64,000 bases of DNA from CBDCVA01 sp965222935 [NCBI: Candidatus Latescibacterota bacterium] (lineage in GTDB: Bacteria; Latescibacterota; CBDCVA01): contig CBDCVA010000002.1 in assembly GCA_965222935.1 (NCBI GenBank), positions 1 to 64,000 of the forward strand, read 5' to 3'. Each line of letters starts with the position of its first letter. The stretch's first letter is position 1. Made by a program: the position numbers and the translations under genes. Shown piece by piece: positions 42,622-60,111 of this stretch. The notes beneath the pieces are model-generated. The model saw only the letters and a list, made by a program, of their open reading frames with translations. It was not told the origin of the DNA and did not search any database.

Positions 42622-42688
42622 CAACGGCCCCCTCCCTGCTCGCGGGGAGGGGGTTGAGGGGTGGGGTCTCCCCGCCCGTGTCACCCTC
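42622..42688 (+). repeat. G-run dispersed element, copy R1
   Basis: First of ten copies. In this orientation it has C-runs, then a G-rich strand with four runs of at least 4 G, then TCTCCCCGCC and GTGTCAC. It lies in the 296-bp space between the PEGA lipoprotein and comM; the rest of that space holds nothing I recognise. Confidence 0.8.
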
Positions 42689-42750
42689 ATTGACGAGGCA
42701 GCCGATCCTCTGCGGGGTCGACTGCTTTTTTCATCCGATACACGCCGGTT

Positions 42751-44289
42751 ATGTTCGCCAAGATTCGCTCCGCTGCCATCCTGGGCGTTGACGCCTACAT
42801 CGTCGATGTCGAAACGCACATCGAATCCCAGGTCCCCACGTTCACGGTTGTGGGCCTGCCCGACAGCGCGGTCAAGGAGAGCAAGGAACGCGTCGCTGCT
42901 GCCATCCGTAACAGCGGCTTCGCTTTTCCCCCAAGGCGCATCACGGTCAATCTGGCGCCGGCGGACGTCCGCAAGGAGGGATCGGGGTTCGACTTGGCCA
43001 TCGCCGCAGGCATCTTGGCGGCCACCGGCCAGGTGGCGCCGGAGGGCCTCGGGTCCTGGGTGCTGGTCGGCGAGCTGTCCCTTGATGGCTCCGTGCGTCC
43101 GGTGCGGGGAGCGCTGTCAATGGCGGTGGAGGCGCGGAACTCGGGGGCGCGGGCGCTCCTTGTGCCGCTGGCCAATGCCAACGAGGCGGCCATCGTGCGG
43201 GGAGTGGATGTCTACCCGGTAGCTCATCTGCGTGAAGCTGCGGATCTCCTCCGGGGAGAAGGGGGCGCGGCCCCTCGCCGGAGCGGCCATGTCGCCGGGC
43301 CGGATCAAGGGGCCGCCTACCCCGTGGACCTCCGCGATGTGCGCGGCCAGGAGCATGTCAAACGAGCCCTGGAGGTGGGCTGCGCCGGAGGCCACAACAT
43401 CTTGATGATCGGGCCGCCTGGTTCGGGCAAGACCATGCTCGCCCGCCGACTGCCGACGATCCTGCCCGAACTCACGCTGGAGGAGGGCATCGAGACGACC
43501 AAGGTCCACTCCGTTGCGGGACTGCTCGGCCGCGAGACCGGCCTGGTGCTGGCGCGTCCTTTTCGCGCACCGCACCACTCCATCAGCGATGTCGGGCTCG
43601 TGGGCGGCGGCGCGTTCCCTCGTCCCGGCGAGGTCAGCTTGGCGCACAATGGGGTGCTCTTTCTCGACGAGTTGTCCGAGTTCTACCGGAACGTTCTCGA
43701 AGTGCTGCGCCAGCCCCTGGAAGACGGTGAGGTCACGATCTCCCGGGCGAGCGCGACGGTGACTTTTCCGGCCCGTTGCATGCTAGCCGCTGCGATGAAC
43801 CCTTGTCCCTGCGGCTACTACTCCGACCCGAACCGGGAGTGTGCTTGCAGACCGCAGGCGATCCGCAGTTATCTTTCGCGCATCTCTGGACCCTTGCTAG
43901 ACCGCATCGATATCCACGTCGAAGTCCCGGCCGTTCGTTATCAGGATCTGGCAGGTAAGCCTTCGGGCGAGACATCGGCTTCCATCCGCGAGCGTGTGGT
44001 GACCGCACGGCGCCGGCAAATCGAACGCTTCGGCGGTCATGACGGCGTGTACACGAACGCGCACATGGGTTCGCGTCACATCCGGGAGGTCGGCAAGGTT
44101 GATGCCGCGGGCGAAGAACTGCTTCGTTTGGCGATCACCCGTTTGGGGCTCTCCGCACGGGCGTACGATCGCATCTTGAAAGTCGCGCGCACCGTGGCGG
44201 ACCTGGAAGGGGCGTCGGGCCTGAACGCCGCCCACGTGAGCGAGGCGATCCAGTATCGCAGCCTGGACCGAAGCTCCTGGGCCACCTGA
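42751..44289 (+). CDS. comM: ComM/YifB-family Mg-chelatase-like AAA+ ATPase
   Basis: 512 residues. The N-terminal Lon-like domain (about 1-165, MFAKIRSAAILGVDAYIVDVE, FTVVGLPDSAVKESKERV) is followed by the AAA+ module with Walker A GPPGSGKT (221-228), Walker B LFLDELSEF and a Cys-rich loop NPCPCGYYSDPNRECAC, then a Mg-chelatase C-terminal domain. ComM is a hexameric helicase aiding branch migration during integration of transforming DNA; homologues are broadly conserved, including in non-competent species. Its last 30 bases recur at 44619-44648. An R2 element begins at its stop codon. Confidence 0.93.
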   Translation: MFAKIRSAAILGVDAYIVDVETHIESQVPTFTVVGLPDSAVKESKERVAAAIRNSGFAFPPRRITVNLAPADVRKEGSGFDLAIAAGILAATGQVAPEGLGSWVLVGELSLDGSVRPVRGALSMAVEARNSGARALLVPLANANEAAIVRGVDVYPVAHLREAADLLRGEGGAAPRRSGHVAGPDQGAAYPVDLRDVRGQEHVKRALEVGCAGGHNILMIGPPGSGKTMLARRLPTILPELTLEEGIETTKVHSVAGLLGRETGLVLARPFRAPHHSISDVGLVGGGAFPRPGEVSLAHNGVLFLDELSEFYRNVLEVLRQPLEDGEVTISRASATVTFPARCMLAAAMNPCPCGYYSDPNRECACRPQAIRSYLSRISGPLLDRIDIHVEVPAVRYQDLAGKPSGETSASIRERVVTARRRQIERFGGHDGVYTNAHMGSRHIREVGKVDAAGEELLRLAITRLGLSARAYDRILKVARTVADLEGASGLNAAHVSEAIQYRSLDRSSWAT

Positions 44290-44377
44290 GGGGCAACCTC
44301 GGTTCACTCTCTTGGCCCCCTCTCCTCTGGCGGGGAGGGGTTTTAGGGGGGTGGGGTTTACCCGCCAGAGAGGAGCC
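44289..44377 (+). repeat. G-run dispersed element, copy R2
   Basis: Starts at the comM stop codon with GGGGCAACCTCGG, then GTTCACTCTCTTGG, the C-run/G-run hairpin part and GTTTACCCGCC. Same orientation as R1 and R3. Confidence 0.85.
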
Positions 44378-44453
44378 CTCCGGAGCTAGCGGTCACCGAC
44401 CGCGCCGAGTGGCTGACGGCCTGGAAGTTCGCCAAGGTGTTGAGCCGGCCTGG

Positions 44454-44608
44454 GGCGGCTGGAGCGACCTCGGTTCACTCTCTTGTCCCCCTCTCCGCCA
44501 GCGGGGAGGGGGTTGGGGGGTGGGGTTTCCCCGCCCGTGTCACTCTTCCGACACTGACAGCGGGCCTCGCGTTCGCTATATTCTCCAGGCGCTCGGAAGG
44601 GTCGGTCT
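44454..44608 (+). repeat. G-run dispersed element, long copy R3
   Basis: Long form of the element: GTTCACTCTCTTG box, G-run part, then a tail with a small hairpin (GTGTC/GACAC) and a segment ending GCTCGGAAGGGTCGGTC. The reverse complement of the whole unit matches R5 at 53936-54090. Frames that read across it are repeat-derived and not genes. Confidence 0.85.
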
Positions 44609-44659
44609 CTCACCCTTCAGCCTGGACCGAAGCTCCTGGGCCCCCTGAAAGGATCTGCG

Positions 44660-47600
44660 ATGACCCTCCTCTTTTGGTCGCTCCTAATCGCCTCGGGCGC
44701 AGCGGGGCTCATCTATGAGATCCTGTGGACCCGCCAGCTTGCGTTGATCTTCGGCGTCTCCTCCTTTGCCATCGCCACGGTGCTGGCCGTCTTCATGGGT
44801 GGCCTCGCTTTGGGCAGCGCACTGTTCGGACGCTGGGTGGACCGAGGGCAGCGGCCCCTCCGCTGGTATGCAGCGCTCGAGGTCGGCATCGGGATCTGGG
44901 GGCTGCTGTCACCCGTCGGCCTGGCCGCACTCGACCCCATCTACATCGCGCTCTACCCCGCCATCCGCTCGGCTGAATGGGTGGGCGTGGCGCTCAAGTT
45001 CCTGCTCGCAGCCGCCGTGCTGCTTCCTCCCGCGACGCTCATGGGCGGGACTCTGCCCGTCTTGAGCCGCTTCGTCGTACGGCGCCTGGGCGAAGTGGGC
45101 TGGCGGGTCGGCACGCTGTACGCCTCGAACACGATCGGCGCCGTTCTAGGCTGTTTCCTGGCCGGGTTCGTGCTGGTCGCCGCCATGGGGGTACGCTCCA
45201 CACTCTGGTTGGCCGTCGCGCTCAACGCGCTCGTCGCTCTGGGCGCCCTGCTGCTCGACCGCGCCGTCAACGCACCAACCCTACCCGCCCGGGAGCCCGC
45301 CGCCGAGGGGCAACGCCCCCGTGCGGGTGAGGGAGGCGATGCTTTCGATGACCTGACCATCCGTCTGGTGACGTGGGGTTTCGCGGTCACCGGCTTCGCC
45401 GCGCTGTGCTACGAAGTGTTTTGGACCCGCCTGCTCGTCTACATCCTCGGGCAAACGACCTATGCCTTTGCCACCATGCTCACGACCTTCCTCCTGGGCA
45501 TCGCCGTCGGAAGCTTCATCTTCGCGCGCCTGGCGGACCGAAGCCGCGATCCGGTGCGTCTCTTCGCGCTCACCCAGATGACGGGGGCGGTGGCGGCCTT
45601 TTTGGTCCTGCCGGCGATCCCCCGGATCATGGCGTTCTTCAGCTTCGCCGGAGGCGCCTATGACGTGGAATCGTGGTGGCTCGCAGTCGGCGCCAAGTTC
45701 GCCACCGCGGGCGCGACGATGTTCGTACCGACGCTGCTCCTGGGCGGGGCCTTTCCCATCGTCGGCCGGATCGTGACGCGGCGGCTGAACGCCGTGGGCG
45801 GGACCGTCGGCAACCTGTACGCCGCCAACACGATCGGCGCGATCGTCGGTTCGGTCGCGAGCGGCTTCATACTGATCCCCGTGTTCGGGGTGCGGGTCAG
45901 CCTGGCCCTGGTGACCTGCCTCTCCTTCGGGCTGGGGATGCTCCTGTTCACGCGCTCACGGGCGTGGCGCCTGCCCGGCGCACGCGTCGGCGCGGTGGCC
46001 GCGGTGGCCGCGTTCCTGATCGCCAACGTGAGCCTGGCGCGCACCACGCCGCTCATCTTCTCGACGACGCGCATCGTCGAAACCCCCGACCGCTTCGAGG
46101 TGCTTTACAGCAAGGAGGGGATCGACGCCTCGCTGGCAGTCATCGAGCGGCGCCACGACGGGGTCAAGGAACTCAACATCAACGGCACGACCACGGCCTA
46201 TTCGGCCTACGAGGACATCCAGGTCCACCTGCTTTTAGGCCACCTTCCCATGCTCTTCCATCCTGATCCCGAGGAGGTGCTGGTCGTCGGGTTCGGCTTC
46301 GGCAGCACGGCGCGCGCCGCGCTCTGCTATGATGTCGAGCGCGTCGATTGCGTCGAACTGGTCCGGGATGAAGTGGAGACCGCTCCGCTTTTCTTCGAAC
46401 AGAACCGAGGCGCGCTCCATGACCCCCGCTTCCACCTCATCATCGGCGATGGCCGCAACCACATCCTGGCGACGCGAGAGACCTACGATGCCATCTCGTT
46501 CAACGCCGTCCACCCCAAGCACAGCCCCAATCTCTACACCAGGGACTTCTATGAACTCTGCCGGGCGCGCCTCAAGCCGAACGGCACCGTGTGCGCCTGG
46601 GTGCCCACCAACTGGATGACCGAACGCGAGTACCGGTCCGTCCTCGCCACCTTCGCCGCCGTCTTCCCCCACAGCACGCTGTGGTGGAACAACCCCGGAC
46701 ACACCGTCATCGTGGCCACCGGCGAAGCCCTGGAACTGGACTATGACCACCTGACCCAAAGGCTCGCGCAGCCGAAGGTCCGCGAGCACCTGGCGGAAGT
46801 CAACCTGGCCCAACCCATGACCCTCCTCGGCACGCTGCTGCTCAACGAGGCGGACCTGCACGCCTACATCGCGGGCGTGCCGCTGGATACCGACGACCAC
46901 CCCTTGATCGAGTTCTCGCGCGCGACGAATCTTCTCCCCGGCCGCGATGTGTTGCGAGGCCTCGAACGGGTCCGGTCGCATCCCGCCACCCTCCTCGATT
47001 CGCCCCTCGATCCGGACGTCGCCGCCGCCCTCGACCGGCAGTACGACGCGATGGGACACGTCCTCCACGGACAGATAGCCGATTGGCTCGACCACAACAT
47101 CCCCGGGGCTCTCGAATCCTTCCGCGCCGCCGAAGTGCTCGCGCCGGCCGACCGCAACCTGGCCTACCTCCTGACGGTGGCTGAACACGAGCGGCAGACC
47201 CTCCTGGCCAGCGACACCTCCCGGCTTTCCGACGTGACCGGCCTGACCATGAAGGCTCGGCTGGACCTGGCCGAAGGCAGGGCGCAAGCGGCGCTCGAGG
47301 CTTACCGCCGAGCGGCTGCCCTCGCGCCCGAGGCGCCGGAGGTCCACTACAACCTCGCTCGCGCTCTCGACGAGCTCGGCCGACCCGAGGAAGCCCTGCC
47401 GCTTTACGAAAAGGCCCTGGTCCTCGACCCCGAATACGTCAATGCGCTCCTGGGACTGGCCACCTCGGCGCAGACGATCGGCGACCTGGCGCGAGCGCGC
47501 GAGGCGCTCGAACGGGCGGTGGCCCTCGATCCCGATGACGCCGGGGCGCGTTCCGATCTGGGCGTGCTCCTCAGACGGATTGGCGACGAAGGTGGCGCCA

Positions 47601-48007: not shown

Positions 48008-48065
48008 TCTTTCGTGGTCATGCCAAACCCTGTTCACGGCATCGTCGTCATGCACGAGACTGCAG

Positions 48066-48182: not shown

Positions 48183-48668
48183 TCAGGGCTGCTCATCGTA
48201 CCATCCCGAGCCGAAAAGCAACCCGGCGTGTCGGACGACCCACGTATGCTTCAGGGTCTCCTCTTCAGTCTCCGGGTTATAAAAGACGTAATCGACCCAC
48301 TTGCCTTCCTCGGTCGCAGAGGCGAACTCGGCGCCGTAGTCGTGGCCGTTTGCGTCGATCCGTTGGTCCCGGGTCCGTCCCAGGAGTTCCGAACGGGGGT
48401 GAGCGATGATGACGTCGTTCTCGTCGTGGATGAAGACATACCACTCGCCGTCTGCGCTCTCGGGAGAGTTGTAGTAGGCGAGGGTTGCCTCGCGCCCCTC
48501 GGTCTTGTAGCGGCTTACCGCCTGATCCACCAGATACTTCGTATATTCTGCGGGCGCCTTATCGGGATCGGGGATGAGCGGCTCCGTCGAATTACTGCAA
48601 GAGACGGCAACCCATAGCGCCGCTACCGCTACAACGACCGCGTTACCGTACCGCATTCGGTGATACAC
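48183..48668 (-). CDS. Cache-type sensory lipoprotein (complete copy)
   Basis: 161 residues from GTG (48668), preceded by a GGAGGAGG ribosome binding site; ATG at 48656 is an alternative. Signal peptide with lipobox-like VSC (VAALWVAVSCSNS). The rest matches a single Cache domain: AVSRYKTEGREATLAYYNSPESADGEWYVFIHDENDVIIAHPRSELLGR and GKWVDYVFYNPETEEETLKHTWVVRHAGLLFGSGWY. Cache domains bind small extracellular ligands; this one has no kinase or receptor attached. Bases 48312-48668 are duplicated at 51932-52288 with only a few differences, so the neighbouring large gene starts with the same ~117 residues. Confidence 0.85.
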   Translation of the reverse strand: MYHRMRYGNAVVVAVAALWVAVSCSNSTEPLIPDPDKAPAEYTKYLVDQAVSRYKTEGREATLAYYNSPESADGEWYVFIHDENDVIIAHPRSELLGRTRDQRIDANGHDYGAEFASATEEGKWVDYVFYNPETEEETLKHTWVVRHAGLLFGSGWYDEQP

Positions 48669-48734
48669 GAGGAACCCTCCTCCTTCTCGCTTATGGGAAT
48701 GGGTCGAATAGGGCCTGTGATCGGCAATATAGGC
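48312..48734. repeat. 423-bp direct repeat, copy 1
   Basis: Matches 51932-52354 at a constant offset of 3,620 bases with about five mismatches over 423 bp. It covers the upstream region, start and ~117 codons of the Cache lipoprotein. This copy belongs to the intact gene. Confidence 0.95.
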
Positions 48735-48760
48735 GACGGCCGCTCCTCGCAGGGTTTCAT

Positions 48761-51700
48761 TCACCCCCTGGGCCGGACGAACCCCGATTCTTGAACGATC
48801 AGACGATTGTTGTGCTTGGCGATCTCAGGGATCGCGTCCTTGGGATCGACCACGATCTCGTCGCCGACCTGAGCATTGGTGAAGTGCACAACCGCTACGC
48901 GCGGTTTCAGGTCGAGCGGTGCCTCAAGCTTGGACAAGATGATGCTCTGTATCTTTTCACCTTCGCGGATCAACGCCACTTCCACATTCTCAGCGGCGCG
49001 CGCGCCGATGTTGTGCACCCGAATCCGGAGAAGGCTTTCATATTGCCAAGAAGAGAAAACATCGCATGTGCTGTCCAGAGGCGACAGCGCCAAGTCGGGG
49101 CGATCCAGAAGGTCGTCCAGCCGCTCGACTTGCTCCACCTCGATGATGGTCTGGCGCCTCGGCGGCAGCGTCAAAGCGATCGGCGCATGGCGATGAAGGA
49201 CCATGACCTCTTCCTTTTCAACAGCGTCTAGCACACCGTCGTTATTCGCATCCGGGCCAACTCGGACTTTGTACCGCCCATGCTCCAGCCGCCACACCCG
49301 CATCCGGCCTTGAATGGATTTTCCTGCGAAGCTGTAGAACCTCACCTTGAGGGATGTCTCATCGGACGGGCCCACGAGCGCGGCGAAGTCCTTGCCGAGT
49401 CCCTCATAGCTCACTGCAAAGTTATGGGGAAAGATGTTACGGGCTGCGTAGCTCCCGAGATAGCAGTCGAAAACCTCCTTGAAGGGCAGGGGAAACACAC
49501 GATCCGAGTACGGCTCGGCTGCGGTGTACATGTAACCGAAGCGCTGCCACTCGGCGACGGCGGCTTCCAGGCTCTCCTCGAGACGGTCGGTTTTGCCGGT
49601 CGCCACGTAATAGGCATAGGTGGGCAACAGGGCCAACTTGCCTTTCTCGCGGAGATGCTCGAGGAAGGGCGACGCGTTGACGAAATCCGCCGCATAATGT
49701 GACACGATGGCGCTGTCTCCCGCGTCAACGGCCATCATGAACGGCTTCAGGAACCGCGGATCCTTCGTGACCTCGTAGATGCCGAGCCACGCTATGCCCT
49801 GGCTCCGGTACCCTCCGCCACCCACCGCTGTCTTCTCAGCCATGACCACCCTGCCAGTCTTGACATCAATGACCGTGGCGTAATTGCCCGGTTCCTGGTG
49901 CTCGATCCAGCCATCGGCCCACTGGCTGTAGAAGTCAACAGCCGCCGGGTTCCGGTTGTACCAGGCCACTTCATACGCCGGGTGAAGGAGCAAGGCATGG
50001 GTGTGCCCGGCCTCGCCGAGCGGTCCGGGCGCGTACAGATCGTTCGCTTCCATTTTCAGGGCGCGAAAATGGATGTGCCCGCAGCCGGCTTTCACCGTGA
50101 GTTTGCGAATCGAGTCGGCCGCGCGCATGGCCCGTTCATAGTGAACCGGGTCGCCATAATTCCACCAGGCATTCGTGGCGAGCTGATTGATGCCTTCTTC
50201 ATAGGAGTGGTGCGGGCTGTGCTTGAAGATGTTGAGGTAGTCTTCGGACAGGTACCGCTTGATCGCCAGGTCGGCCAGTTTGGCCCCCGCGTCGCGTATC
50301 GCGGCGCCAAGCGGCGCGTCCTCGACAAAAGGATAGGAGGCCCATTGCTGATACATGTCTCCATCGTCGTTCACGCGTTCGCCAATCTCCCCCGACTCGG
50401 GGGCCAGGCGATTCTCAATCCACCACTCCGGGATGCTGCGGGCGCCGAGCCACGCTTCGTGCAGCATGACGGCCCATCGCGGCGCGCCCGGCGTCTCCGG
50501 AAGGGTCGCCTTCCACGGGCGCGAGCGCGTAATCGCCTGGAAGATCCATTCATGGTATTGGCGGACGATATCGTCTTCGGGCGCCAGCACGCGGCACTGT
50601 TCCACTGTCTCGAAGAGGCTTTCCAGTCCCACCCGATAGCGGCGGCCTCTTTTGCCGGTGTCCGCAAGCATGGTTAGCCACTCGCGAATGTCGACTTTAC
50701 CACCACCGCGTTTCTCAACCTCGGCATAAAGTCCCATCCAGGGGCGCGGCTCGCTCATCACATAAAACTGCCCCTTCAGCAGGAGCTTCCGCCAGGCGAT
50801 GGCTTGTGGCAGGGCCTCTTCACGGGGGATGCACTCAAGCGTTACCCGAAGGCCAGCCAGCGTCAGGGAGCGCTCCGCGCCGATGCTCAGCCAGAGTCGG
50901 GCTGGCGACACCAGCGGCGGGCCGTAGATGAGCTCGACTTCGCCGAGATCGGCCGGAAGGAAGACCTGATTGGGGAAGTCCAGAGTGACTTCGTAAGCGC
51001 CCGGTTTGTCCACCACGCAATCAACGCCCATGATCTCGCGACGCGGATCGAGCGGATCCTGTATGCGGAACGTCAGCAACGTCGGCCCGTCCAGCGCTTC
51101 AACCGTCCAGCGAAAGGTCACCGCGTCCAGCCCCTGAGCGGGGTCCTGCAGCGGTGTCAGCAGATGAACAAACTCGCGTCCATCAAAGGAGAGCGTCTGG
51201 GCCTCTCCCGTGCCCAGAGCGAAAAGGCGTCCGCCTTCCCCGAAGCGCTCGGTCACCCAGCGCTGGAATACCTCCGACCCGGAAGCAGGTCCCGTCACGA
51301 CCAGGCCGGTGCCGGAGCCGCTTGGCGCGCCGTGCTCGATGCGCAAGAAGGAGGCGTCACACAGATCCCCGGAGCGTGTGCGCTCCCCCGCATAGAACAG
51401 GTCCACCCGGGACAGGTTGAGCCGCTCCGGAAAGATGCGTCGGAAGGCGCTACCCGGATTCGACACATCACAGATCTTCTTCGCGCCGGGGCCGGGGTAG
51501 AAATCCCCGGCATCCTGATACATCACGCCGCGATAATCACCGCGAAACAGGACCGCGTCGAATCCTTTCGCGTCGGCGAGGGTGATATGAAGCCCGTTGG
51601 CCTCGTTGAACTCGTACTGGGTGCCGGAGTACACCCAGCTCGGGTGTTCCCCCCACCCGTTATTGTAGTTGCGCGTGTCCAGCCGGCCGTCAACCGGGTA

Positions 51701-52288
51701 GTGGATGAATCCTCTGCCGACGCGGCAATCGGACACCGGCACTTTCTCCACGCGCACCGTACGCCCCGGCGCAAGCCGAATCGCGCCCTCGAGATGGCCG
51801 CCGCTCATGTGCTCTTCAATGGAGATCAGTTCGGCCTGTGTGGAATCATGACCCCCGGGCCGCGCCGGGCGAGCGGCGCCTAACATGACTGCACTCCCGA
51901 TAGAAACCAAGGCCGCCATGATAGCTGTCCTGGTCGCAGAGGCGAACTCGGCGCCGTAATCGTGGCCGTTTGCGTCGATCCGCTGGTCCCGGGTCCGTCC
52001 CAGGAGTTCCGAACGGGGGTGAGCGATGATGACGTCGTTCTCGTCGTGGATGGAGACATACCACTCGCCGTCTGCGCTCTCGGGAGAGTTGTAGTAGGCG
52101 AGGGTTGCCTCGCGCCCCTCGGTCTTGTAGCGGCTTACCGCCTGATCCACCAGATACTTCGTATATTCTGCGGGCGCCTTATCGGGATCGGGGATGAGCG
52201 GCTCCGTCGAATTACTGCAAGAGACGGCAACCCATAGCGCCGCTACCGCTACAACGACCGCGTTACCGTACCGCATTCGGTGATACAC
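48761..52288 (-). CDS. Chimeric protein: Cache lipoprotein N-terminus fused to large secreted protein of unknown function
   Basis: 1,175 codons in one frame. Residues 1-117 equal the Cache lipoprotein start; the junction (GAEFASAT to RTAIMAALVSIG) falls at the edge of the 423-bp repeat. What follows, MAALVSIGSAVMLGAARPA, looks like the original signal peptide of an independent protein of about 1,050 residues, whose own start (ATG near 51920) may still be used. That protein has a beta-rich N-terminal half, a helical middle with Trp/His-rich segments (HSPHHSYEEGINQLATNAWWNYG, DFYSQWADGWIEHQEPGN) reminiscent of alpha/alpha-toroid glycan-processing enzymes, and a CARDB-like C-terminal domain (LRIRVHNIGARAAENVEVALI ... 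HNNRLIV). I do not recognise a named family. Confidence 0.75.
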   Translation of the reverse strand: MYHRMRYGNAVVVAVAALWVAVSCSNSTEPLIPDPDKAPAEYTKYLVDQAVSRYKTEGREATLAYYNSPESADGEWYVSIHDENDVIIAHPRSELLGRTRDQRIDANGHDYGAEFASATRTAIMAALVSIGSAVMLGAARPARPGGHDSTQAELISIEEHMSGGHLEGAIRLAPGRTVRVEKVPVSDCRVGRGFIHYPVDGRLDTRNYNNGWGEHPSWVYSGTQYEFNEANGLHITLADAKGFDAVLFRGDYRGVMYQDAGDFYPGPGAKKICDVSNPGSAFRRIFPERLNLSRVDLFYAGERTRSGDLCDASFLRIEHGAPSGSGTGLVVTGPASGSEVFQRWVTERFGEGGRLFALGTGEAQTLSFDGREFVHLLTPLQDPAQGLDAVTFRWTVEALDGPTLLTFRIQDPLDPRREIMGVDCVVDKPGAYEVTLDFPNQVFLPADLGEVELIYGPPLVSPARLWLSIGAERSLTLAGLRVTLECIPREEALPQAIAWRKLLLKGQFYVMSEPRPWMGLYAEVEKRGGGKVDIREWLTMLADTGKRGRRYRVGLESLFETVEQCRVLAPEDDIVRQYHEWIFQAITRSRPWKATLPETPGAPRWAVMLHEAWLGARSIPEWWIENRLAPESGEIGERVNDDGDMYQQWASYPFVEDAPLGAAIRDAGAKLADLAIKRYLSEDYLNIFKHSPHHSYEEGINQLATNAWWNYGDPVHYERAMRAADSIRKLTVKAGCGHIHFRALKMEANDLYAPGPLGEAGHTHALLLHPAYEVAWYNRNPAAVDFYSQWADGWIEHQEPGNYATVIDVKTGRVVMAEKTAVGGGGYRSQGIAWLGIYEVTKDPRFLKPFMMAVDAGDSAIVSHYAADFVNASPFLEHLREKGKLALLPTYAYYVATGKTDRLEESLEAAVAEWQRFGYMYTAAEPYSDRVFPLPFKEVFDCYLGSYAARNIFPHNFAVSYEGLGKDFAALVGPSDETSLKVRFYSFAGKSIQGRMRVWRLEHGRYKVRVGPDANNDGVLDAVEKEEVMVLHRHAPIALTLPPRRQTIIEVEQVERLDDLLDRPDLALSPLDSTCDVFSSWQYESLLRIRVHNIGARAAENVEVALIREGEKIQSIILSKLEAPLDLKPRVAVVHFTNAQVGDEIVVDPKDAIPEIAKHNNRLIVQESGFVRPRG

Positions 52289-52354
52289 GAGGAACCCTCC
52301 TCCTTCTCACTTATGGGAATGGGTCGAATAGGGCCTGTGATCGACAATATAGGC
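51932..52354. repeat. 423-bp direct repeat, copy 2
   Basis: Second copy, carrying the Cache gene leader, ribosome binding site and 5' coding part, but cut before the domain ends and joined to the large gene. Differences from copy 1 are single bases, for example GTAATCG for GTAGTCG and GTGGATGGAG for GTGGATGAAG. Confidence 0.95.
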
Positions 52355-52432
52355 CGGCCGTACCGCATTGTCGAACGAGGCCCGAAACCGCGCCTTCCAT
52401 CGGCGGAACGCAGGTTGGCACGGGGGTCCTGG

Positions 52433-53089: not shown

Positions 53090-53133
53090 TGGGCATGCTC
53101 GCCCCTTGCGGCGCACGATGCGGACGGACACCG

Positions 53134-53192
53134 TGGAAACCCCACCCCCAACCCCCTCCCCGCCAGCGGGGAGGGGGCCAAGAGAGTGAACC
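53134..53192 (-). repeat. G-run dispersed element, copy R4
   Basis: Opposite orientation to R1-R3: AAACCCCACCCCC, C-runs, GGGGAGGGGGCC, AAGAGAGTGAACC. It sits in the leader of the S24 repressor gene, directly before its start. Confidence 0.85.
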
Positions 53193-53207
53193 GTGGAGTT
53201 CAGTAGG

Positions 53208-53936
53208 ATGGACGACTTTCGCCATGATGACCCGAGCGCGCCGTTCGTCGCCTACTTCCGGGAGCTTTTGGCTGCGCACGACGTGAGCCAGAACGCCCTG
53301 GCCAGGCGACTGGGCCATTCTCCCTCCTATATCAACGCCATCCTCAAGGGTCGGGCGCGGCCTCCCAAGCCGCCGGTCTGTGCGGAGATCGCGCGCGCGC
53401 TGGACGCTGCGTCCGCCGAGGCAGCGGAGCTCTGTGCGCGCTCGGAAGCCTTCTGGGCGCGGAGGCTCCGGGTATCCACGAGCGCGGCCAATCCGCCGGC
53501 GCGGTCGAGTTCGGGTCAGCCGGAATCGGTGGCGGTCTCTCCCTGGCCGCTTTTGACCAAGGTGCTCGCCGGCGCGCCGCAGGAGTGGCAGGACGTCTTC
53601 CAGCCGGGACATGCGGAGGAGATCCTGCCCGTGCCTTTCGACGACCCCAACGGATTCTGTCTCGAGATTCTGGGCGACTCCATGACGCCCAGGTACCTGC
53701 CCGGCGACATCATCGCCGTCGCTCCCAACCGGCCGGTGCATTCGGGCGACTGCGCCGTGGTGAGGGTGGGCGAGGGCGGTGTGGACGGTGAGCGGACGGT
53801 CAAGCACGTGCGCATCCTCCCCGGCGACCGCGTCGAACTGCGGCCGGAAAACCCGAAGTACCCGACGGTGACCTATCCTCTGCGCGAGGTCCAGATCCTC
53901 GGGAAGGTCGTCGCCCTGATCCGCAAGGAGGGTTGA
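53208..53936 (+). CDS. XRE-type helix-turn-helix repressor with S24 (LexA/CI-like) self-cleavage domain
   Basis: 242 residues from ATG at 53208 (GTG at 53193 possible). Residues 11-75 form a Cro/CI-type HTH (DVSQNALARRLGHSPSYINAILKGRARPP). The C-terminal S24 domain holds a candidate cleavage site Ala121-Gly122 (KVLAGAPQEW), Ser158 in LGDSMTPRYLPGD and Lys199 in ERTVKHVRI, matching the LexA Ser-Lys spacing. It is likely a DNA-damage- or stress-inactivated repressor of itself and the divergent small genes. A 34-base slice of this gene (53645-53678) recurs at 58001-58034. Confidence 0.88.
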   Translation: MDDFRHDDPSAPFVAYFRELLAAHDVSQNALARRLGHSPSYINAILKGRARPPKPPVCAEIARALDAASAEAAELCARSEAFWARRLRVSTSAANPPARSSSGQPESVAVSPWPLLTKVLAGAPQEWQDVFQPGHAEEILPVPFDDPNGFCLEILGDSMTPRYLPGDIIAVAPNRPVHSGDCAVVRVGEGGVDGERTVKHVRILPGDRVELRPENPKYPTVTYPLREVQILGKVVALIRKEG

Positions 53937-54090
53937 GGGACCGACCTTTCCGAGCGCCTGGAGAATATAGCGAGCGCGAGGGCCGCTGTCAGTGTCGGAA
54001 GGGTGACACCAGCGGGGAAACCCCACCCCCTAACCCCCTCCCCGCCAGCAGGGAGGGGGCAAAGAGAGTGAACCGAGGTTGCCCCAGCCG
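53936..54090 (-). repeat. G-run dispersed element, long copy R5
   Basis: Long form in inverse orientation to R3, starting at the S24 gene stop with GACCGACCTTTCCGAGCG, passing through the C-rich part and AAAGAGAGTGAAC and ending in the 17-base word CGAGGTTGCCCCAGCCG (54074-54090). Confidence 0.88.
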
Positions 54091-54097
54091 TCGGGGG

Positions 54098-54970
54098 TTA
54101 CTTCAGAAACCCGTCGGGCGTGCGGTGCACCTCGCGGTCGTACTTGTCAATGAAGACGAGGTTGCCCCAGCCGCTCTGCCGGTCGTCCGAGCCGCACCAG
54201 GCCAACTCGCCCCAGTCGAACTTCCCTTCTTCCGACAGGCGGGCCATCTCCCCGAAGGAGGCCTTCCGGGAATCGTCCTTGTCCACGGCCACCACCATGA
54301 AGCCGATCGTGCGGCCCAGGAAAGGCGGCGCCCAACGGTCGGTGTTGGAGGCAAGGCCCCGTTCGTTCATCGGGATACCCACCTCCATCACGTAGCCGTC
54401 ATCCAGAACCTTGACGCTGTACTCGAGGTCCGGCACCGGATCGATGTTCGCGATGTAATGATAGCCCTCCGCCTTTCCGGCGCCCCACCATAGCGTGCCG
54501 GGCCTGCGCTCCGGCTCGGCGGTGATCCACAAGTGATGGTCGCCGCTCCAGAAAGTACCCGTGTCGTCCTCATCGTGGTCGAGATCGAAGTAGGGCGCGA
54601 GACCGTCCACCCGGAAGCTTTTATGGGTCTCGAGGCCTTCGGTCTGGTGAACGTCATCGTAGACGCGCGCGCCGAAATAGAAGACGTCGTCGGTCCATGC
54701 CGTCACGATGTGGGCGTCCATATCCTCCGCGTTCGAGAACATCCCGTAGTGGAGCGGGCTGTGGTGCTGTTCGATGTTCATGTGCAGGGTGTCCGTCGCG
54801 GGCCACTCACCCAGGTCCGCGTCCACGGTGAGGGGTTCGGTCGCCCTCGCGCAGTAGAGGACGCGCTTGCCGGCTTTATAGCGTTCAAAGCGGCCAGCGG
54901 GCCCCTCGGCCCAGGCCGCGCAGGCAAGCACCAGACCGATGACCGTCGTACCGATCAGGAACGCTCTCAT
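54098..54970 (-). CDS. Secreted CBM9-like protein, paralogue 1
   Basis: 290 residues from ATG at 54970 (GGGAG upstream; the frame opens at 55003). Signal peptide ending near AWAEG. The pattern PLTVDADLGEWPATDTL, VTAWTDDVFYFGARVYDDVHQTEG, APYFDLDHDEDDTGTF and YVMEVGIPMNE is the CBM9/DOMON-like fold. The C-terminus is WCGSDDRQSGWGNLVFIDKYDREVHRTPDGFLK. The coding sequence at 54157-54173 contains the same 17-base word that ends the R-elements. It is a close relative of the next gene, with which it forms a minus-strand pair. Confidence 0.8.
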   Translation of the reverse strand: MRAFLIGTTVIGLVLACAAWAEGPAGRFERYKAGKRVLYCARATEPLTVDADLGEWPATDTLHMNIEQHHSPLHYGMFSNAEDMDAHIVTAWTDDVFYFGARVYDDVHQTEGLETHKSFRVDGLAPYFDLDHDEDDTGTFWSGDHHLWITAEPERRPGTLWWGAGKAEGYHYIANIDPVPDLEYSVKVLDDGYVMEVGIPMNERGLASNTDRWAPPFLGRTIGFMVVAVDKDDSRKASFGEMARLSEEGKFDWGELAWCGSDDRQSGWGNLVFIDKYDREVHRTPDGFLK

Positions 54971-55016
54971 CCCTCTCAGGCTCCCTTCCCTTGTCTCAGG
55001 CACCGGGTCGTGCCGC

Positions 55017-55059
55017 CTACTTCAGATACCCGTTGGGCGTGCGGTGCACCTCGCGGTCG
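55017..55059 (-). pseudogene. C-terminal relic of a third CBM9-like copy
   Basis: Minus-strand translation DREVHRTPNGYLK and stop, the exact C-terminal pattern of both paralogues, directly followed upstream by element R6. Only 13 codons remain. Confidence 0.8.
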
Positions 55060-55170
55060 GGGAAACCCAACCCCCTGACCCCCTCCCCGCAAGCAGGGAG
55101 GGGGCAAAGGCTCACTCCGCCCGGGCGGGGAAGGGGACAAGAGAGCGAACCGAGGTTGCCCTAGCTGTCG
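55060..55170 (-). repeat. G-run dispersed element, copy R6 (variant)
   Basis: Variant copy with an extra segment (GGCTCACTCCGCCCGGGCGGGGAAGG) before the AAGAGAGCGAACCGAGGTTGCC box; it seems to contain two overlapping element ends. Confidence 0.8.
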
Positions 55171-55173
55171 GGG

Positions 55174-56058
55174 CTATTTCAGAAACCAGTCGGGCGTGCG
55201 GTGCACCTCGCGGTCGTACGCGTCGATGAAGACGAGGTTGCCCCAGCCGCTCTGCCGGTCATCCGAGCCACACCAGGCCACTTCGCCCCAGTCGAAGGCG
55301 CCCTCCTCCTCGGACAGGCGCACCATCTCCCGGAACGGCATCTTCCGAGAATCGTCCTTGTCCACCGCCACCACCATGAAGCCGATGGTCCGTCCCAGAA
55401 AAGGCAGCGCCCACCTGTCGGTGTTGGAGGCCAAGCCCCGCTCGTCCATCGGGATACCCACCTCCATCACGTAGCCGTCGCCGGTGACCTTGACGGCGTA
55501 CTCGAAGCCCTCCGCCGGCTCGACGCCTTCTTCGTATCGGTAACCCTCCTCTTTCCCCTCGCGCCACCAAAGCGTGCCGGGGACGCGCTCCGGCTCGGCG
55601 GTGATCCACCAATTCTGGTCGCCGCTGTGGAAGCCTCCCGCATCATTCTCGTCGTGGTCGAGGTCGAAGTACGGCGAGAGGCCATCCACCTGGAAGGCTT
55701 TGTGGGGCTCGTGGCCCTCGGTCTGGTGAACATCGTCGACTACGCGAGCGCCGAAATAGAAGGTCTCGTCGGTCCAGGCCGTCACGACGTGGACGTCCAT
55801 GTCCTCGGCTCCGGAGAGAATGCCGTGGTGGAGCGGACTGCTGTGCATTTCGACGTTGAGGCGCAGGGTGTCCGTCGCGGGCCACTCCCTCAGGTCGCCG
55901 TCCAAGGTGATGGGTGACATCGCCTGAGCGCAGTATACAACGCGCTTGCCGGCTTTATAGAGTTCAAAGCGGCCAGCGGGCTCCTCGGCCCAGACGGCGC
56001 TAACGACCGCGAACCCCGTGATCGCGGTACAGGCCAACATCATCGTCATCTTTCGCAT
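55174..56058 (-). CDS. Secreted CBM9-like protein, paralogue 2
   Basis: 294 residues. Signal peptide MRKMTMMLACTAITGFAVV..WAE. Shares nearly every motif with paralogue 1 (ITLDGDLREWPATDTLRLNVEMHSSPLHHG, SPYFDLDHDENDAGGF, EVGIPMDERGLASNTDRWALPFLGRTIG, DREVHRTPDWFLK). Probably binds glycan or a small ligand at the surface or in the periplasm; no catalytic residues are evident. Together with the 27498 gene and several relics it is an expanded family in this genome. A GGAG-like ribosome binding site is near ATG at 56058. Confidence 0.8.
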   Translation of the reverse strand: MRKMTMMLACTAITGFAVVSAVWAEEPAGRFELYKAGKRVVYCAQAMSPITLDGDLREWPATDTLRLNVEMHSSPLHHGILSGAEDMDVHVVTAWTDETFYFGARVVDDVHQTEGHEPHKAFQVDGLSPYFDLDHDENDAGGFHSGDQNWWITAEPERVPGTLWWREGKEEGYRYEEGVEPAEGFEYAVKVTGDGYVMEVGIPMDERGLASNTDRWALPFLGRTIGFMVVAVDKDDSRKMPFREMVRLSEEEGAFDWGEVAWCGSDDRQSGWGNLVFIDAYDREVHRTPDWFLK

Positions 56059-56114: not shown

Positions 56115-56171
56115 GGCCCTCCCCGCGGGCGGAGAAGGGGCAAAGAGAGTGAACCGAGGTTGCCCTAGCCG
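56115..56171 (-). repeat. G-run dispersed element, short copy R7
   Basis: Truncated copy (CCCTCCCCGCGGGCGGAGAAGG, AAAGAGAGTGAACCGAGGTTGCC) that runs into the stop codon of the TPM gene: the stop lies within the CTAGCCG end of the element. Confidence 0.75.
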
Positions 56172-56821
56172 CTCCGCATGCCGCGGGCGGAACGCCGCCG
56201 GAACAGAAGGCGCCACCCGCCCAGCCCGGCGAGTATGCCGCCCGCAGTCAGAGTTCCGATCCAGCCCAGCGACCGCGCTTCGTCCTCGGGACGCTGGAGG
56301 CGAAGCTCACGCGGCAGGCCCGCAAGCTCAACGCCCGCATCCCGGGCACACAGGATGGCAAAGGCGTTGGCGCCTTCGACGCAGGCGGTCCCAAGATCCC
56401 CAGCGCGCAGATGCGGCGCCATGACTTCGCCGGCGATGCTCGAAGCCAGCGCCGGAGGGCAGACGCCCTCGAGCGCGGGTCCGACGACGACGCGCGGGTC
56501 GGGGCTATCGGTCGGAGCGAGGATCAATCCCCAGCGGCCATCCTCAGACAGATCAGCCGCGAGCCTCACCAGCGCATGTTCCAACGTGCTGGCGGGGGCG
56601 ATAGCGACGGTCAAGGCAACGCCCGTCTTCTCCCTGAGCTCGCTGGCGCGGACGATGATGGCGCCGCGCGCATCAGTGGACAACGCGCCGAAGAGATCCA
56701 CGATGGGATTCCACGGCTCCGCCGCCAGGACCGGGATTGCCCGTCCGATCAGGACCCAGAGCGCTACGCGGCACAAGATGCTCTTCAATCGGGACTCCAC
56801 GGCGTGATTTCCGCCATCCAT
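56165..56821 (-). CDS. TPM-domain membrane protein
   Basis: 218 residues. A signal/anchor (SILCRVALWVLIGRAIPVLA) is followed by a TPM domain (about 38-165: VDLFGALSTDARGAIIVRASELREKTGVALTVAIAPASTLE, GRWGLILAP). A C-terminal transmembrane helix (LGWIGTLTAGGILAGLGGWRLLF) and basic tail end it. TPM proteins occur in chloroplast photosystem repair and in bacterial envelope stress; activity here is unknown. The final codons (RGMRSG) run into element R7, so its original end may have been altered. Confidence 0.72.
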   Translation of the reverse strand: MDGGNHAVESRLKSILCRVALWVLIGRAIPVLAAEPWNPIVDLFGALSTDARGAIIVRASELREKTGVALTVAIAPASTLEHALVRLAADLSEDGRWGLILAPTDSPDPRVVVGPALEGVCPPALASSIAGEVMAPHLRAGDLGTACVEGANAFAILCARDAGVELAGLPRELRLQRPEDEARSLGWIGTLTAGGILAGLGGWRLLFRRRSARGMRSG

Positions 56822-56900: not shown

Positions 56901-56978
56901 GCGGAGAAACCCCACCCCCAACCCCCTCCCCGCGAGCAGGGAGAGGGACAAGAAGGTGAACTGAGGTTGCCCCAGCCG
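56901..56978 (-). repeat. G-run dispersed element, copy R8
   Basis: AAACCCCACCCCC, C-runs, then GGGACAAGAAGGTGAACTGAGG and the 17-base word (one mismatch, TGAGG). It is joined directly to a CBM9-like gene fragment. It lies in the 318-bp space between the TPM and Nmad3-like genes. Confidence 0.85.
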
Positions 56979-57102
56979 CTCTGCCGGTCGTCCGACCCGC
57001 ACCAGGCCAACTCGCCCCAGTCGAACTTCCCTTCTTCCGACAGGCGCGCCATTTCCCCGAAGGAGGCCTTCCGGGAGTCGTCCTTGTCCACGGCCACCAC
57101 AC
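56962..57102 (-). pseudogene. CBM9-like gene fragment joined to R8
   Basis: About 141 bp nearly identical to 54157-54297 of CBM9 paralogue 1. Minus-strand translation MVAVDKDDSRKASFGEMARLSEE..., DRQSGWGNL, then the frame runs into the element. Both the start and the true end of the gene are missing. Confidence 0.88.
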
Positions 57103-57139
57103 GGTGAGGGGTGGGGAAAGCCGTCCACCTTCGATTGGC

Positions 57140-57925: not shown

Positions 57926-58034
57926 GGCATCCCGAGCTTGCGGCTCTCCGAACTGTTCGATGCGATGGATGGCCGCGCCGGGTCACCTGGCCTGCGGGGG
58001 CCCCAACGGATTCTGTCTCAAGATTCTGGGCGAC

Positions 58035-58125
58035 CCCAACCCCCTCTCCGCCGGCGGGGAAACCCCACCCCCCTCCCCGCGAGCAGGGAGGGGGCAAAGA
58101 GAGTGAACCGAGGTTGCCCCAGCCG
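58035..58125 (-). repeat. G-run dispersed element, copy R9
   Basis: C-runs partly doubled and one G-tract shorter than in other copies, then GGGCAAAGAGAGTGAAC and the exact 17-base word at 58109-58125. Confidence 0.85.
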
Positions 58126-58221
58126 CTCTGCCGGTCGTCCGACCCGCACCAGGCCAACTCGCCCCAGTCGAACTTCCCTTCTTCCGACAGGCGGGCCATT
58201 TCCTCGAAGGAGGCCTTCCGG
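58109..58221 (-). pseudogene. CBM9-like gene fragment joined to R9
   Basis: Matches 56962-57075 and CBM9 paralogue 1, sharing with the R8-linked copy the variant GACCCGCACC (the genes have GAGCC). It is cut at GGCCTTCCGG and replaced by the Nmad3-gene slice. Confidence 0.85.
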
Positions 58222-58245
58222 TCGTGCGCGCATAAGCGCCGATGG

Positions 58246-59088
58246 TCACCTGGCCTGCGGGGGCCCCAGGCGGCCTTCGGGCGGGCTCAACAGCCCCAGG
58301 GGACGGCCGCCGGACGGCGGGATGCGGGTAACGAGGTGGTTGTGGGGACCGAAGACGCTGGCCAGGATCGTGGCGCCTGTGGAATCGTCGATGCCGGCGC
58401 TTCCGCCCCAGCGCAACAGCCTTAGAAACTCCTCCTGCTCGCTGGGGATCAGTGCGCTGCCGCGCTCGAGCGCGATGCGAACTCCCCACGCATCGAAGCG
58501 GAAGTTGTCGCGGTCGTCGAAGGCGAGCAGGAAGCAGGCCGTATAAGGGAGGGTGTTGGGACAGAAGACGGCGTTGACCGTGAGGGGGCCCTTCGGGCTC
58601 TTGTAGACGGGGAACACCTGACCGAAAGCGGCGTAGCGGCCCAGGGAATCGCCCCGGGTGACCTCGATACCGGGCCAGCGGCGGTACGGGAGCCCACGGG
58701 CGGTGTCGATCCCTGCGTTGGCGAATCGCGGCTCGGCCGGGAGCAGGACGCCGACGGCGTACTGGCCTGGTTCCACGACGGCCTCGTAGGGCGTGGACCC
58801 CACCCTGCGGCCCTCGCGGAAGACGCGCGAGGCGTCGGCGGGTAGGCGGCCCGGCCAGATATAAACATCCGCGCCCAGAGGAATGCTGCCGACCCACAGG
58901 ACGTCGCGGGTCGAATCGGGTGGGGAGAGGGTGATCCGTTCGAGGCCGCGCAGCGTGGCCACAGCGAGGGTGTCTTTCGGGAGAGCGGGTCGCTCGGCGG
59001 CGGGGCTCGGACGGATGGAGACGACGTCCATCGCGCATAGAGCGACCAGCAGGCAAACCACTTGACCTGGATTCTTGCTGCGCATCAT
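58246..59088 (-). CDS. Secreted PEGA-like protein with possibly overwritten C-terminus
   Basis: 280 residues from ATG at 59088 (MMRSKNPGQVVCLLVALCAMDVV signal; the frame opens further upstream to 59193). A PEGA-like unit spans about residues 60-120: LWVGSIPLGADVYIWPGRLPADASRVF, VGSTPYEAVVEPGQYAVGVLLP. The remainder is beta-rich and unassigned (FDDRDNFRFDAWGVRIALERGSALIP). The stop and last residues (GPPQAR) lie inside word A of the mosaic, so the natural end may have been replaced. Function unknown. Confidence 0.65.
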   Translation of the reverse strand: MMRSKNPGQVVCLLVALCAMDVVSIRPSPAAERPALPKDTLAVATLRGLERITLSPPDSTRDVLWVGSIPLGADVYIWPGRLPADASRVFREGRRVGSTPYEAVVEPGQYAVGVLLPAEPRFANAGIDTARGLPYRRWPGIEVTRGDSLGRYAAFGQVFPVYKSPKGPLTVNAVFCPNTLPYTACFLLAFDDRDNFRFDAWGVRIALERGSALIPSEQEEFLRLLRWGGSAGIDDSTGATILASVFGPHNHLVTRIPPSGGRPLGLLSPPEGRLGPPQAR

Positions 59089-59161
59089 ATTATTAAGATA
59101 ATAGAACGGATAGTGATGTGAGCGTTTGCTCTCATCGCTCTTTGGGCCCTTTCTCCTCTTC

Positions 59162-59254
59162 ATGCGCATGGGCGTCGTCACTCTCTCCCGCAAGCCAGGG
59201 ACGGGGACCCATGCGCTGATGATCGCGCGCGCGACGTGGGAGCTTCTGGGCTAA
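59162..59254 (+). pseudogene. Internally deleted relic of the cytidylate-kinase-like gene
   Basis: A 30-codon frame whose first half (MRMGVVTLSRKPGTGT) mirrors the start of the next gene (MHMSAITISRELGTDA) and whose second half (MIARATWELLG) mirrors its end (IIAHATWELLGQD), with everything between deleted. It sits 34 bases before the intact gene. Confidence 0.75.
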
Positions 59255-59288
59255 GGCCAGGGCGCAGCCCTCTTCTAGCGGAAGGTTC

Positions 59289-59987
59289 ATGCACATGAGC
59301 GCTATCACCATTTCCCGCGAGTTGGGAACAGACGCGCCAACGATTGCCCATCTCGTTGCCGACATGGTCGGCTATGAGTGGCTGGATAAGGCGCTCATTC
59401 GCGAGGTGGCGCGGGTGGCAGACGTGCCTGAGGCGGAGGTCGAGCGCTTCGATGAGGTGGGCGAGCGACCGTTCATTCGCTTTCTGAAAGATCTCCTGGA
59501 GCCCGGCGGCTCGGCGTCGTACGGGGCGTGGTGGGCGAGCGAGTTCCCCGGGGGCATGGTAGCCTCGGCACTGCCGCCGATCGAGGAGGAGGGAGGAGAA
59601 GCGCCCATCCTCGACCACGAGCGGTACAAGGACCTCGTGCGCACGGTGATGGCGCGCCTGGCGGACCGGGGCGATGTCGTCATCGTCGGGCGGGGCGGGC
59701 AGGTGCTGCTCAAGGGCAGGCGCGACGTCCTGAGTGTGCGGCTCGTGGCACCCCTCGAGTTCCGCAAGCAGGTGGTTGTGGCACGGGAGAAGATAGACGC
59801 CGAGGCGGCGGCAGACCTCATCCGGAAGACGGACATCGTGCGTCAGCGCTACATCCAGAACCTCGCGGGCGAGGACTGGGGGAATCCCGCGCTCTATCAC
59901 CTCATCCTCAACGTGCAGAACACGGGGACCGAAGGCGCGGCCAAGATCATCGCACACGCGACGTGGGAGCTTTTGGGCCAAGACTGA
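59289..59987 (+). CDS. Cytidylate-kinase-like family protein
   Basis: 232 residues of the CMP-kinase-like family (PF13189 type). The start SAITISRELGTDAPTIAHLVADMVGYEWLDKALIREVARVADV follows the family pattern, but the glycine-rich loop is altered (GTDAP in place of the usual GSGG), so nucleotide binding is uncertain. Later motifs are DVVIVGRGGQVLLKGRRDVLSVRLVAPLEFRK, LIRKTDIVRQRYIQNLAGEDWGNPALYHLILNV. Members are often regulators or kinases of unknown substrate. An internally deleted relative precedes it and element R10 follows the stop by about 47 bases. Confidence 0.82.
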   Translation: MHMSAITISRELGTDAPTIAHLVADMVGYEWLDKALIREVARVADVPEAEVERFDEVGERPFIRFLKDLLEPGGSASYGAWWASEFPGGMVASALPPIEEEGGEAPILDHERYKDLVRTVMARLADRGDVVIVGRGGQVLLKGRRDVLSVRLVAPLEFRKQVVVAREKIDAEAAADLIRKTDIVRQRYIQNLAGEDWGNPALYHLILNVQNTGTEGAAKIIAHATWELLGQD

Positions 59988-60034
59988 CGCTTCGTGAGGC
60001 TCTACCGCGCCAGCCGCATTATCTTGCGGGACCT

Positions 60035-60111
60035 TGGAGAACCCCACCCCCTAACCCCCTCCCCGCCAGCAGGGAGGGGGCAAAGAGAGTGAACCGAGGT
60101 TGCCCCAGCCG
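60035..60111 (-). repeat. G-run dispersed element, copy R10
   Basis: ACCCCACCCCCTAACCC, C-runs, AGCAGGGAGGGGGC, AAAGAGAGTGAACC and the exact 17-base word (60095-60111). It is followed by a ~20-base CBM9-like slice (to about 60131) that carries the CATCCGAGCC variant of paralogue 2. Confidence 0.88.

What the first reader, a model, noticed from the sequence alone, without database searches (positions are those of the whole stretch)
42622..60111. Ten copies of a G-run dispersed element confined to 42.6-60.1 kb
Copies R1-R10 (42622, 44289, 44454, 53134, 53936, 55060, 56115, 56901, 58035, 60035) share a GTTCACTCTCTT box, a C-run/G-run hairpin and a GTTTCCCCGC end. On one strand most copies keep four runs of 4-6 G separated by loops of one to four bases, the textbook pattern of a G-quadruplex, although base-pairing complementarity alone could explain the hairpin. 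Two copies (R3, R5) have an extra ~70-base tail and are inverted relative to each other. Copies sit right at gene ends (comM, S24 and TPM stops) and I saw none in the first 42 kb. GC-rich intergenic palindromes of this general look occur in many genomes; this family and its G-run conservation may be undescribed.
Basis: partly seen in the sequence, partly recalled or inferred. Interest (0 to 1): 0.75.

Follow-up and report, generated by a model that had tools for sequence, protein, structure and literature searches.

The report
Triplex-type DNA repeats between genes
Ten copies of a short G- and C-rich DNA repeat sit at or between genes in this stretch of an uncultured bacterium's genome; their letters are laid out so that a single strand could fold into a three-stranded DNA helix, a kind of repeat already known from other bacteria, and some copies here are joined to scraps of neighbouring genes.

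Summary
In detail: ten related copies lie at 42.6-60.1 kb and a covariance model finds no other in the window. The quadruplex reading is not the best one. The element reads C-strand, loop, G-strand, short loop, second G-strand; the second G-strand mirrors the first, with T exactly opposite its single A. That is a class II purine-motif intrastrand triplex, the PIT/BoxC/TM kind of repeat. A triplex finder hits seven of ten copies and nothing else in the window. A pattern for this layout with informative letters left free matches 242 times in 30 of 262 genomes of three phylum-level groups (reversed pattern: 0), and there the third strand tracks the purine strand. An exact box-plus-hairpin pattern of the window family was found in no held GTDB contig. 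Copies R7-R10 carry scraps of the S24/R5/CBM9 junction, and three insertion units are flanked by 25, 31 and 42 bp duplications. Best-supported mechanism: local spread by replication template switching. That rests on this window only; fetched regions of two element-rich relatives show no such enrichment. Verdict: new member of a known kind, with a legible rearrangement record.

The parts
42626..42687 (+). R1: hairpin + third strand + start of the 3' tail, no box
44290..44366 (+). R2: box + hairpin + third strand, directly after the comM stop
44455..44618 (+). R3: long form with ~83-nt 3' tail
44259..44289 (+). last 31 bp of comM, left copy of the direct repeat that flanks R2+R3
44618..44648 (+). 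right copy of the 31-bp comM-end repeat (30 of 31 identical)
53131..53196 (-). R4: in front of the S24-type repressor gene
53928..54090 (-). R5: long form between the convergent S24 and CBM9 genes
55018..55059 (+). extra copy of the CBM9 gene's last 42 bp, left repeat flanking R6
55057..55165 (-). R6: box and half hairpin, then a second hairpin + third strand
55175..55216 (+). end of the second CBM9 gene, right repeat flanking R6
56117..56177 (-). R7: box + hairpin without third strand; overlaps the TPM gene stop
56901..57100 (-). R8 fused to a copy of CBM9 gene 54158-54295 (97%)
57981..58005 (+). left copy of the 25-bp identical direct repeat flanking the R9 block
58001..58247 (-). R9 block: S24 scrap (58001-58038), element (58051-58125), CBM9 scrap (58109-58221), Nmad3 scrap (58222-58247)
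58244..58268 (+). right copy of the 25-bp repeat flanking the R9 block
60036..60136 (-). R10: element (100% to R5 over 72 nt) fused to 42 bp of CBM9 gene sequence
53645..54295 (+). presumed source region (S24 end - R5 - CBM9 end) colinear with the scraps in R7-R10

Best explanation
A family of class II intrastrand-triplex repeats. On the G-rich strand a C/T arm folds back on a G/A arm as a hairpin, and the second G-strand can lie antiparallel along the purine arm (G on G-C, T on A-T) when the DNA is single-stranded. Inferred: this stalls replication or marks a break, and repair by template switching at short homologies copies the element together with nearby gene pieces into neighbouring sites. 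That would give local clustering, same-strand copies, colinear scraps and short variable-length duplications of the target. Shown: the sequence architecture, its mirror covariation in other genomes, and the scraps and duplications. Not shown: triplex formation, stalling, or that the element itself causes the switching.
For: Triplex finder: 7 hits in the window, all in copies, 0 in 6 simulated windows. Other genomes: a pattern with free third-strand letters gives 213 matches in 19 of 64, 21 in 6 of 119 and 8 in 5 of 79 genomes (a few nested); the reversed pattern 0 in all 262. Third strand follows the purine strand: 69 of 71 rows with A there have A/T opposite, against 6 of 36 rows with G (Fisher p 2.6e-18, rows not independent; one further row with T left out of the test); opposite the fixed A, 104 of 108 are A or T. 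Scraps in R7-R10 are colinear with 53645-54295. Junction overlaps of 16-17, 5 and 4 nt and duplications of 25, 31, 42 bp. Flanking direct repeats in the window: 4 against at most 3 in 200 random placements. Holder 2015 reports more rearrangement around such motifs in E. coli, mechanism unclear.
Against: In 40 fetched regions of two element-rich relatives, flanking repeats (1) and one-sided repeats (24) are not above random placement (means 1.0 and 32.7); in the window itself one-sided repeats (8) are within the control (mean 5.5, largest 14). One of the window's four flanking repeats is the tandem gene duplication itself. The junction between the CBM9 and Nmad3 scraps shares no bases. Holder 2015 saw no triplex in duplex DNA or by in vivo footprinting, and found most E. 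coli copies at fixed loci across strains. Third-strand tracking cannot be tested among the ten window copies, which hardly vary there. The finder- and model-based sets favour the triplex by selection.
Confidence: 0.6

Rival explanations
1. A G-quadruplex element: four G-runs of 4-6 are conserved because they stack as a quadruplex in DNA or RNA.
For: 8 of 10 window copies keep four runs of >=3 G; 28 of 35 elements in the G036 regions too. Archaeal repeats of similar make-up convert to a quadruplex after annealing in potassium (one of two long oligonucleotides; PMC8044849, passages).
Against: 44 of 56 elements in the G028 regions lack four runs of >=3 G (chosen by the triplex criterion). A quadruplex does not explain the mirror order, T opposite A, or tracking. 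NMR of the E. coli motif gave triplex, not quadruplex, signals (PMC4666352).
Confidence: 0.12
2. A REP/MITE-like mobile palindrome moved by a RAYT or another transposase.
For: Short, dispersed, palindromic core; flanking duplications at three units; Y1_Tnp domains in 10 of 16 genomes searched.
Against: No transposase domain at E <= 0.001 among 50 of the 185 listed window ORFs. Y1_Tnp in 6 of 9 element-bearing and 4 of 7 element-free genomes by the pattern. Duplications differ in length (25, 31, 42 bp); two of the three are gene ends (comM, CBM9).
Confidence: 0.13
3. A transcription terminator or mRNA 3'-end stabiliser placed after genes: five consecutive minus-strand ORFs (as I chose them) each end near one copy on their own strand.
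For: R5-R9 positions and strands; strong predicted RNA fold, z -4.7.
Against: No T-run after the hairpin; R1 and R4 lie before genes and R10 is opposite to its gene. Among 98 finder elements (7 of them the window's) 36 of 79 three-prime neighbours are on the same strand, and median distances to 3' and 5' neighbours are 71 and 84 nt (simple ORF rule). PIT elements had no terminator activity (as told in PMC4666352).
Confidence: 0.1
4. Metagenome assembly error produced the mosaic around R8-R10.
For: Window has no held genome; exact 25-bp repeats at the R9 block edges and an exact 26-bp Nmad3 scrap.
Against: S24 and CBM9 scraps differ from the S24 gene and first CBM9 gene by about 3-5%, and R8 and R9 share changes absent from both CBM9 genes.
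Confidence: 0.05

Closest known systems
PIT / BoxC / TMECO class II intrastrand triplex motifs (Holder et al. 2015, PMC4666352: abstract, introduction part 1, finder method, results parts 1-2 of 4 plus two further result sections, discussion part 1 read; earlier Maher papers only as told there)
   Same: Order pyrimidine arm - purine arm - third strand, stems 9-11, short loops, third strand antiparallel to the purine arm, mostly intergenic, multi-copy; that paper links the motif to rearranged flanks.
   Different: Different letters (GGGGAGGGGG / GGGGGTGGGG instead of GGGNGAGGG twice), private GTTCACTCTCTT box and long 3' tail, host outside Proteobacteria by its protein relatives, gene scraps and target duplications visible.
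Recurrent potential quadruplex repeats of Methanomicrobiaceae (PMC8044849, passages read)
   Same: Intergenic G-run repeats beside a C3TC3 strand that fold as hairpin, antiparallel triplex or quadruplex in vitro.
   Different: Archaea; the C-rich strand lies at the 3' end (class I order), here at the 5' end (class II).
REP elements with RAYT transposases (recalled)
   Same: Short intergenic GC-rich imperfect palindromes in many copies.
   Different: No transposase linked here, third strand present; the recalled REP head motif was not looked for.

Membership tests
Class II purine-motif intrastrand triplex repeats (PIT/TM kind) | Y arm, R arm, third strand in this order, stem 6-15, at most one mismatch, loops 1-6 | tested here: met
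   7 of 10 copies with stems 9-11 when loop 1 may be up to 9. Read from the printed loops, four copies (R3, R4, R5, R10) keep the published loop limit of 6; R1, R6, R8 have a first loop of 8. R2 (longer second loop), R7 (no third strand) and R9 (no second loop) fail.
Class II purine-motif intrastrand triplex repeats (PIT/TM kind) | Third strand letters fit G on G-C, A or T on A-T, tracking the purine arm | tested here: met
   in other genomes, with exceptions told in the report; window copies consistent but hardly variable.
Class II purine-motif intrastrand triplex repeats (PIT/TM kind) | Forms a triplex in vitro (CD, NMR) | not testable with these tools
   No bench data for this sequence.
TMECO (E. 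coli BoxC) proper | Consensus CCCTCNCCC N3-6 GGGNGAGGG N3 GGGNGAGGG | tested here: not met
   Window arms are GGGGAGGGGG and GGGGGTGGGG; no blastn match of the R5 core in 20,395 E. coli records.
REP/RAYT system | Y1 tyrosine transposase encoded near or in the genome | tested here: inconclusive
   None in 50 of 185 listed window ORFs; whole genome not held; no association in 16 other genomes.
G-quadruplex repeat | Four G-runs >=3 conserved as the constant feature | tested here: not met
   8 of 10 in the window and 28 of 35 in the G036 regions, but 12 of 56 in the G028 regions.
Known Rfam RNA family | Match at gathering score | tested here: not met
   0 matches in the window.

The most novel reading that the evidence does not exclude
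The triplex element is its own engine of spread without a transposase: by stalling forks it triggers template switches that copy it, with pieces of nearby genes, into neighbouring gene ends, leaving 25-42 bp target duplications. This would be the missing mechanism behind the instability reported at such repeats.
Probability: 0.25. Interest if true: 0.7.

Novelty: new member of a known kind. Interest (0 to 1): 0.45.

Why it matters
Two points go beyond one more repeat family. First, the third-strand letters follow the purine strand in genomes of different phylum-level groups and inside single genomes. That is evolutionary evidence that the triplex layout, not only a hairpin or G-richness, is what is kept; a word search of the Holder 2015 main text finds no covariation term. 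Second, Holder 2015 states that the mechanism of the instability around such motifs is unclear. The R7-R10 mosaics are a readable record that points to template switching and can be tested in a laboratory strain.

Tried and rejected
Exact box+hairpin pattern in genome and viral contigs: 0 and 0. ComM relatives in viral contigs gave 13 loci that were used only in loci-wide scans. Placing the organism: best listed PurL 57% (a Latescibacterota record; capped list), best UvrB 70% in the phylum of that genome, so no relative close enough for an empty-site comparison was found. Outer stem between the box and the third strand, predicted by folding, rejected: upstream Watson-Crick complementarity is not above shuffles in the window (7 elements) or G036 (35); in G028 6 or so of 56 (11%) reach p < 0.05. 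Gene-end preference rejected as general. Local duplication near elements rejected as general in the G028/G036 regions. Plasmids: one weak Nostoc hit, E 0.6. E. coli: none. A paper search on Latescibacter intergenic palindromes gave one paper, listing only.

Repeated identical strings within a genome and two nested overlapping G036 matches were left out, leaving 108 rows. In one search repeated identical strings were likewise left out: 26 rows from the 29. Of the four G036 exceptions, two could be extended in held DNA and both continue with GG, which restores the match in another frame; the other two are not held. Against the tracking rule stand one row each of G021, G022 and G041, two G028 rows (one with T in the purine strand), the two unresolved G036 rows, and G163. 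Of the 22 model matches, 20 were held as loci; 19 of these loci pass the triplex finder and L119 does not.
Full report
Observation. The consensus, read on the G-rich strand, is GGGGCAACCTCGGTTCACTCTCTTGGCCCCCTCCCTGCTnGCGGGGAGGGGGTTnGGGGGTGGGGTTTCCCCGC. R1-R3 are on the plus strand and R4-R10 on the minus strand. R3 and R5 are long forms that match over 163 bp at 89%, inverted. R7 lacks the second G-strand, R9 lacks the loop before it, R1 lacks the box, and R6 has an extra half hairpin inside. A covariance model made from nine copies finds all ten and no further place in the window up to E = 1 apart from reverse readings of the same places. Rfam has no match at gathering scores.

Confinement. 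Under random placement in ORF-free bases (a simple ORF rule) the span is unlikely for nine or ten independent units (0.5% and 0.26%), but not if R5-R10 descend from one another (16% for four units). Most ORFs scanned in the first 42 kb are recognisable metabolic and housekeeping genes; the ORF-free fraction there is similar (7.4% against 7.9%).

What it is. The two G-strands are mirror images: GGGGAGGGGG and, after two or three bases, GGGGGTGGGG. Laid antiparallel on the purine arm of the hairpin, every G meets a G-C pair and the T meets the A-T pair. This is the class II purine-motif intrastrand triplex layout described for the PIT/BoxC/TMECO repeats (PMC4666352). A finder written after the published method (stem >= 8, at most one mismatch, first loop up to 9) reports seven places in 64 kb, all of them copies, and none in six first-order Markov simulations. 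By the loops it printed, four copies also keep the published loop limit of six. Among nine aligned copies the purine arm is invariant and the third strand has mean pairwise identity 0.956, against 0.72 to 0.78 for loop, box and tail.

Test in other genomes. The window has no held genome. The nearest proteins seen are 57% (PurL, a Latescibacterota record) and 67-70% (UvrB, KSB1 and the phylum of that Latescibacterota genome). The model finds 22 matches in 8 of the 64 genomes of that phylum; 19 of the 20 held as loci pass the triplex finder, L119 does not. A pattern that leaves the informative letters free gives 213 matches in 19 of 64, 21 in 6 of 119 and 8 in 5 of 79 genomes of three phylum-level groups (a few matches are nested). 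The same pattern read backwards gives none in any of the 262. In 108 distinct typed rows of the first group, purine position 3 and third-strand position 7 agree: A with A or T in 69 of 71, G with G in 30 of 36; one row has T in the purine strand (p 2.6e-18, but rows share ancestry). Opposite the fixed A the third strand has T in 69, A in 35 and G in 4. G036, G039, G040 and G041 hold both kinds side by side; G227 does too. Where pyrimidine and purine arms disagree, rows with pyrimidine T and purine G have third-strand G in 10 of 14, and the one such row of the second set has A; rows with pyrimidine G and purine A have A in 6 of 6 and 4 of 4, and the one C/A row has A. In the second set 25 of 26 rows agree; G163 does not. 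A quadruplex predicts none of this. In the G028 regions 44 of 56 elements have no four-run pattern (elements chosen by the triplex finder, which favours the triplex reading). In the G036 regions 28 of 35 do have it, as do the seven finder-positive window copies, so the quadruplex remains possible as an alternative fold there.

Rearrangement record. Self-comparison and junction alignments show three insertion units flanked by direct repeats: R2+R3 by 31 bp of the comM end (30 of 31 identical), R6 by 42 bp of a CBM9 gene end, and the R9 block by 25 identical bp. R7, R8, R9 and R10 continue from the element straight into sequence of the CBM9 gene interior through 16-17 bp that element and gene share. 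The pieces are colinear with 53645-54295: R9 has the S24 scrap, element and a 113-bp CBM9 scrap in order, R8 element and 138 bp, R10 element and 42 bp, R7 element and 23 bp. The R9 block then jumps to 26 bp of the Nmad3 gene, with no overlap, and returns with a 4-bp overlap to a point 25 bp before it left. The seven copies at 53-60 kb have one orientation. S24 and CBM9 scraps differ by about 3-5% from the S24 gene and the first CBM9 gene (the R10 scrap is identical over 37 bp to the second CBM9 gene, the Nmad3 scrap is identical to its source), and R8 and R9 share changes absent from both CBM9 genes, which speaks against an assembly artefact. A random join shares >= 4 bp in 0.6% and >= 5 bp in 0.16% of draws.

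How it most likely works. Inference: the single-stranded G-strand folds during replication, the fork stalls or breaks, and repair restarts on nearby templates at short homologies. The published work found rearranged flanks around such motifs and left the mechanism open; it found no triplex in duplex DNA or by footprinting in cells, and most copies at fixed loci across E. coli strains. Against a general rule: in 40 fetched regions of G028 and G036, local repeats flank (1, control mean 1.0) or touch (24, control mean 32.7) the elements no more than randomly placed intergenic points do. In the window the flanking repeats (4) exceed all 200 random placements (largest 3), one of the four being the tandem gene duplication, while one-sided repeats (8) do not (mean 5.5, largest 14). 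So the link between element and mosaic is shown for this window only and may be local history.

Rivals. A transposase-moved REP is not supported: no transposase domain in 50 of the 185 listed window ORFs, and Y1_Tnp domains in 6 of 9 element-bearing against 4 of 7 element-free genomes. A terminator or 3'-end function is suggested by R5-R9, one near the end of each of five consecutive minus-strand ORFs, but the elements of other genomes show no such placement.

Literature. Seven searches were made. PMC4666352 was read in the sections named under Closest known systems, PMC4692102 in abstract and outline, and PMC8044849 in passages. The word starts covari, compensat, microhomology, template switch and direct repeat do not occur in the main text of PMC4666352. 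I did not find this family or its box described, within those searches.

Noticed in passing
window 48307-48742 and 51928-52360: Direct repeat of 436 bp at 98%, one copy around the start and one beyond the end of the 1175-aa CARDB-type ORF 48761-52288.
   Followed up: no
window 59162-59254: A 30-codon open frame that joins a beginning and an end resembling the cytidylate-kinase-like protein encoded just downstream (59289-59987); probably the remnant of a deleted tandem copy.
   Followed up: partly
window 54098-56058: Two tandem CBM9-domain genes, each followed by one element; the gene-plus-element unit looks duplicated.
   Followed up: partly
window 56165-56177: The TPM-domain gene takes its stop codon from copy R7 (GGCTAG where most other copies read GGCTGG).
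   Followed up: no
262 genomes of three phylum-level groups: The motif occurs in the class II order only: 242 matches against 0 for the pattern read backwards, which is the class I order, while the archaeal repeats of PMC8044849 have the class I order.
   Followed up: no
   Followed up: partly
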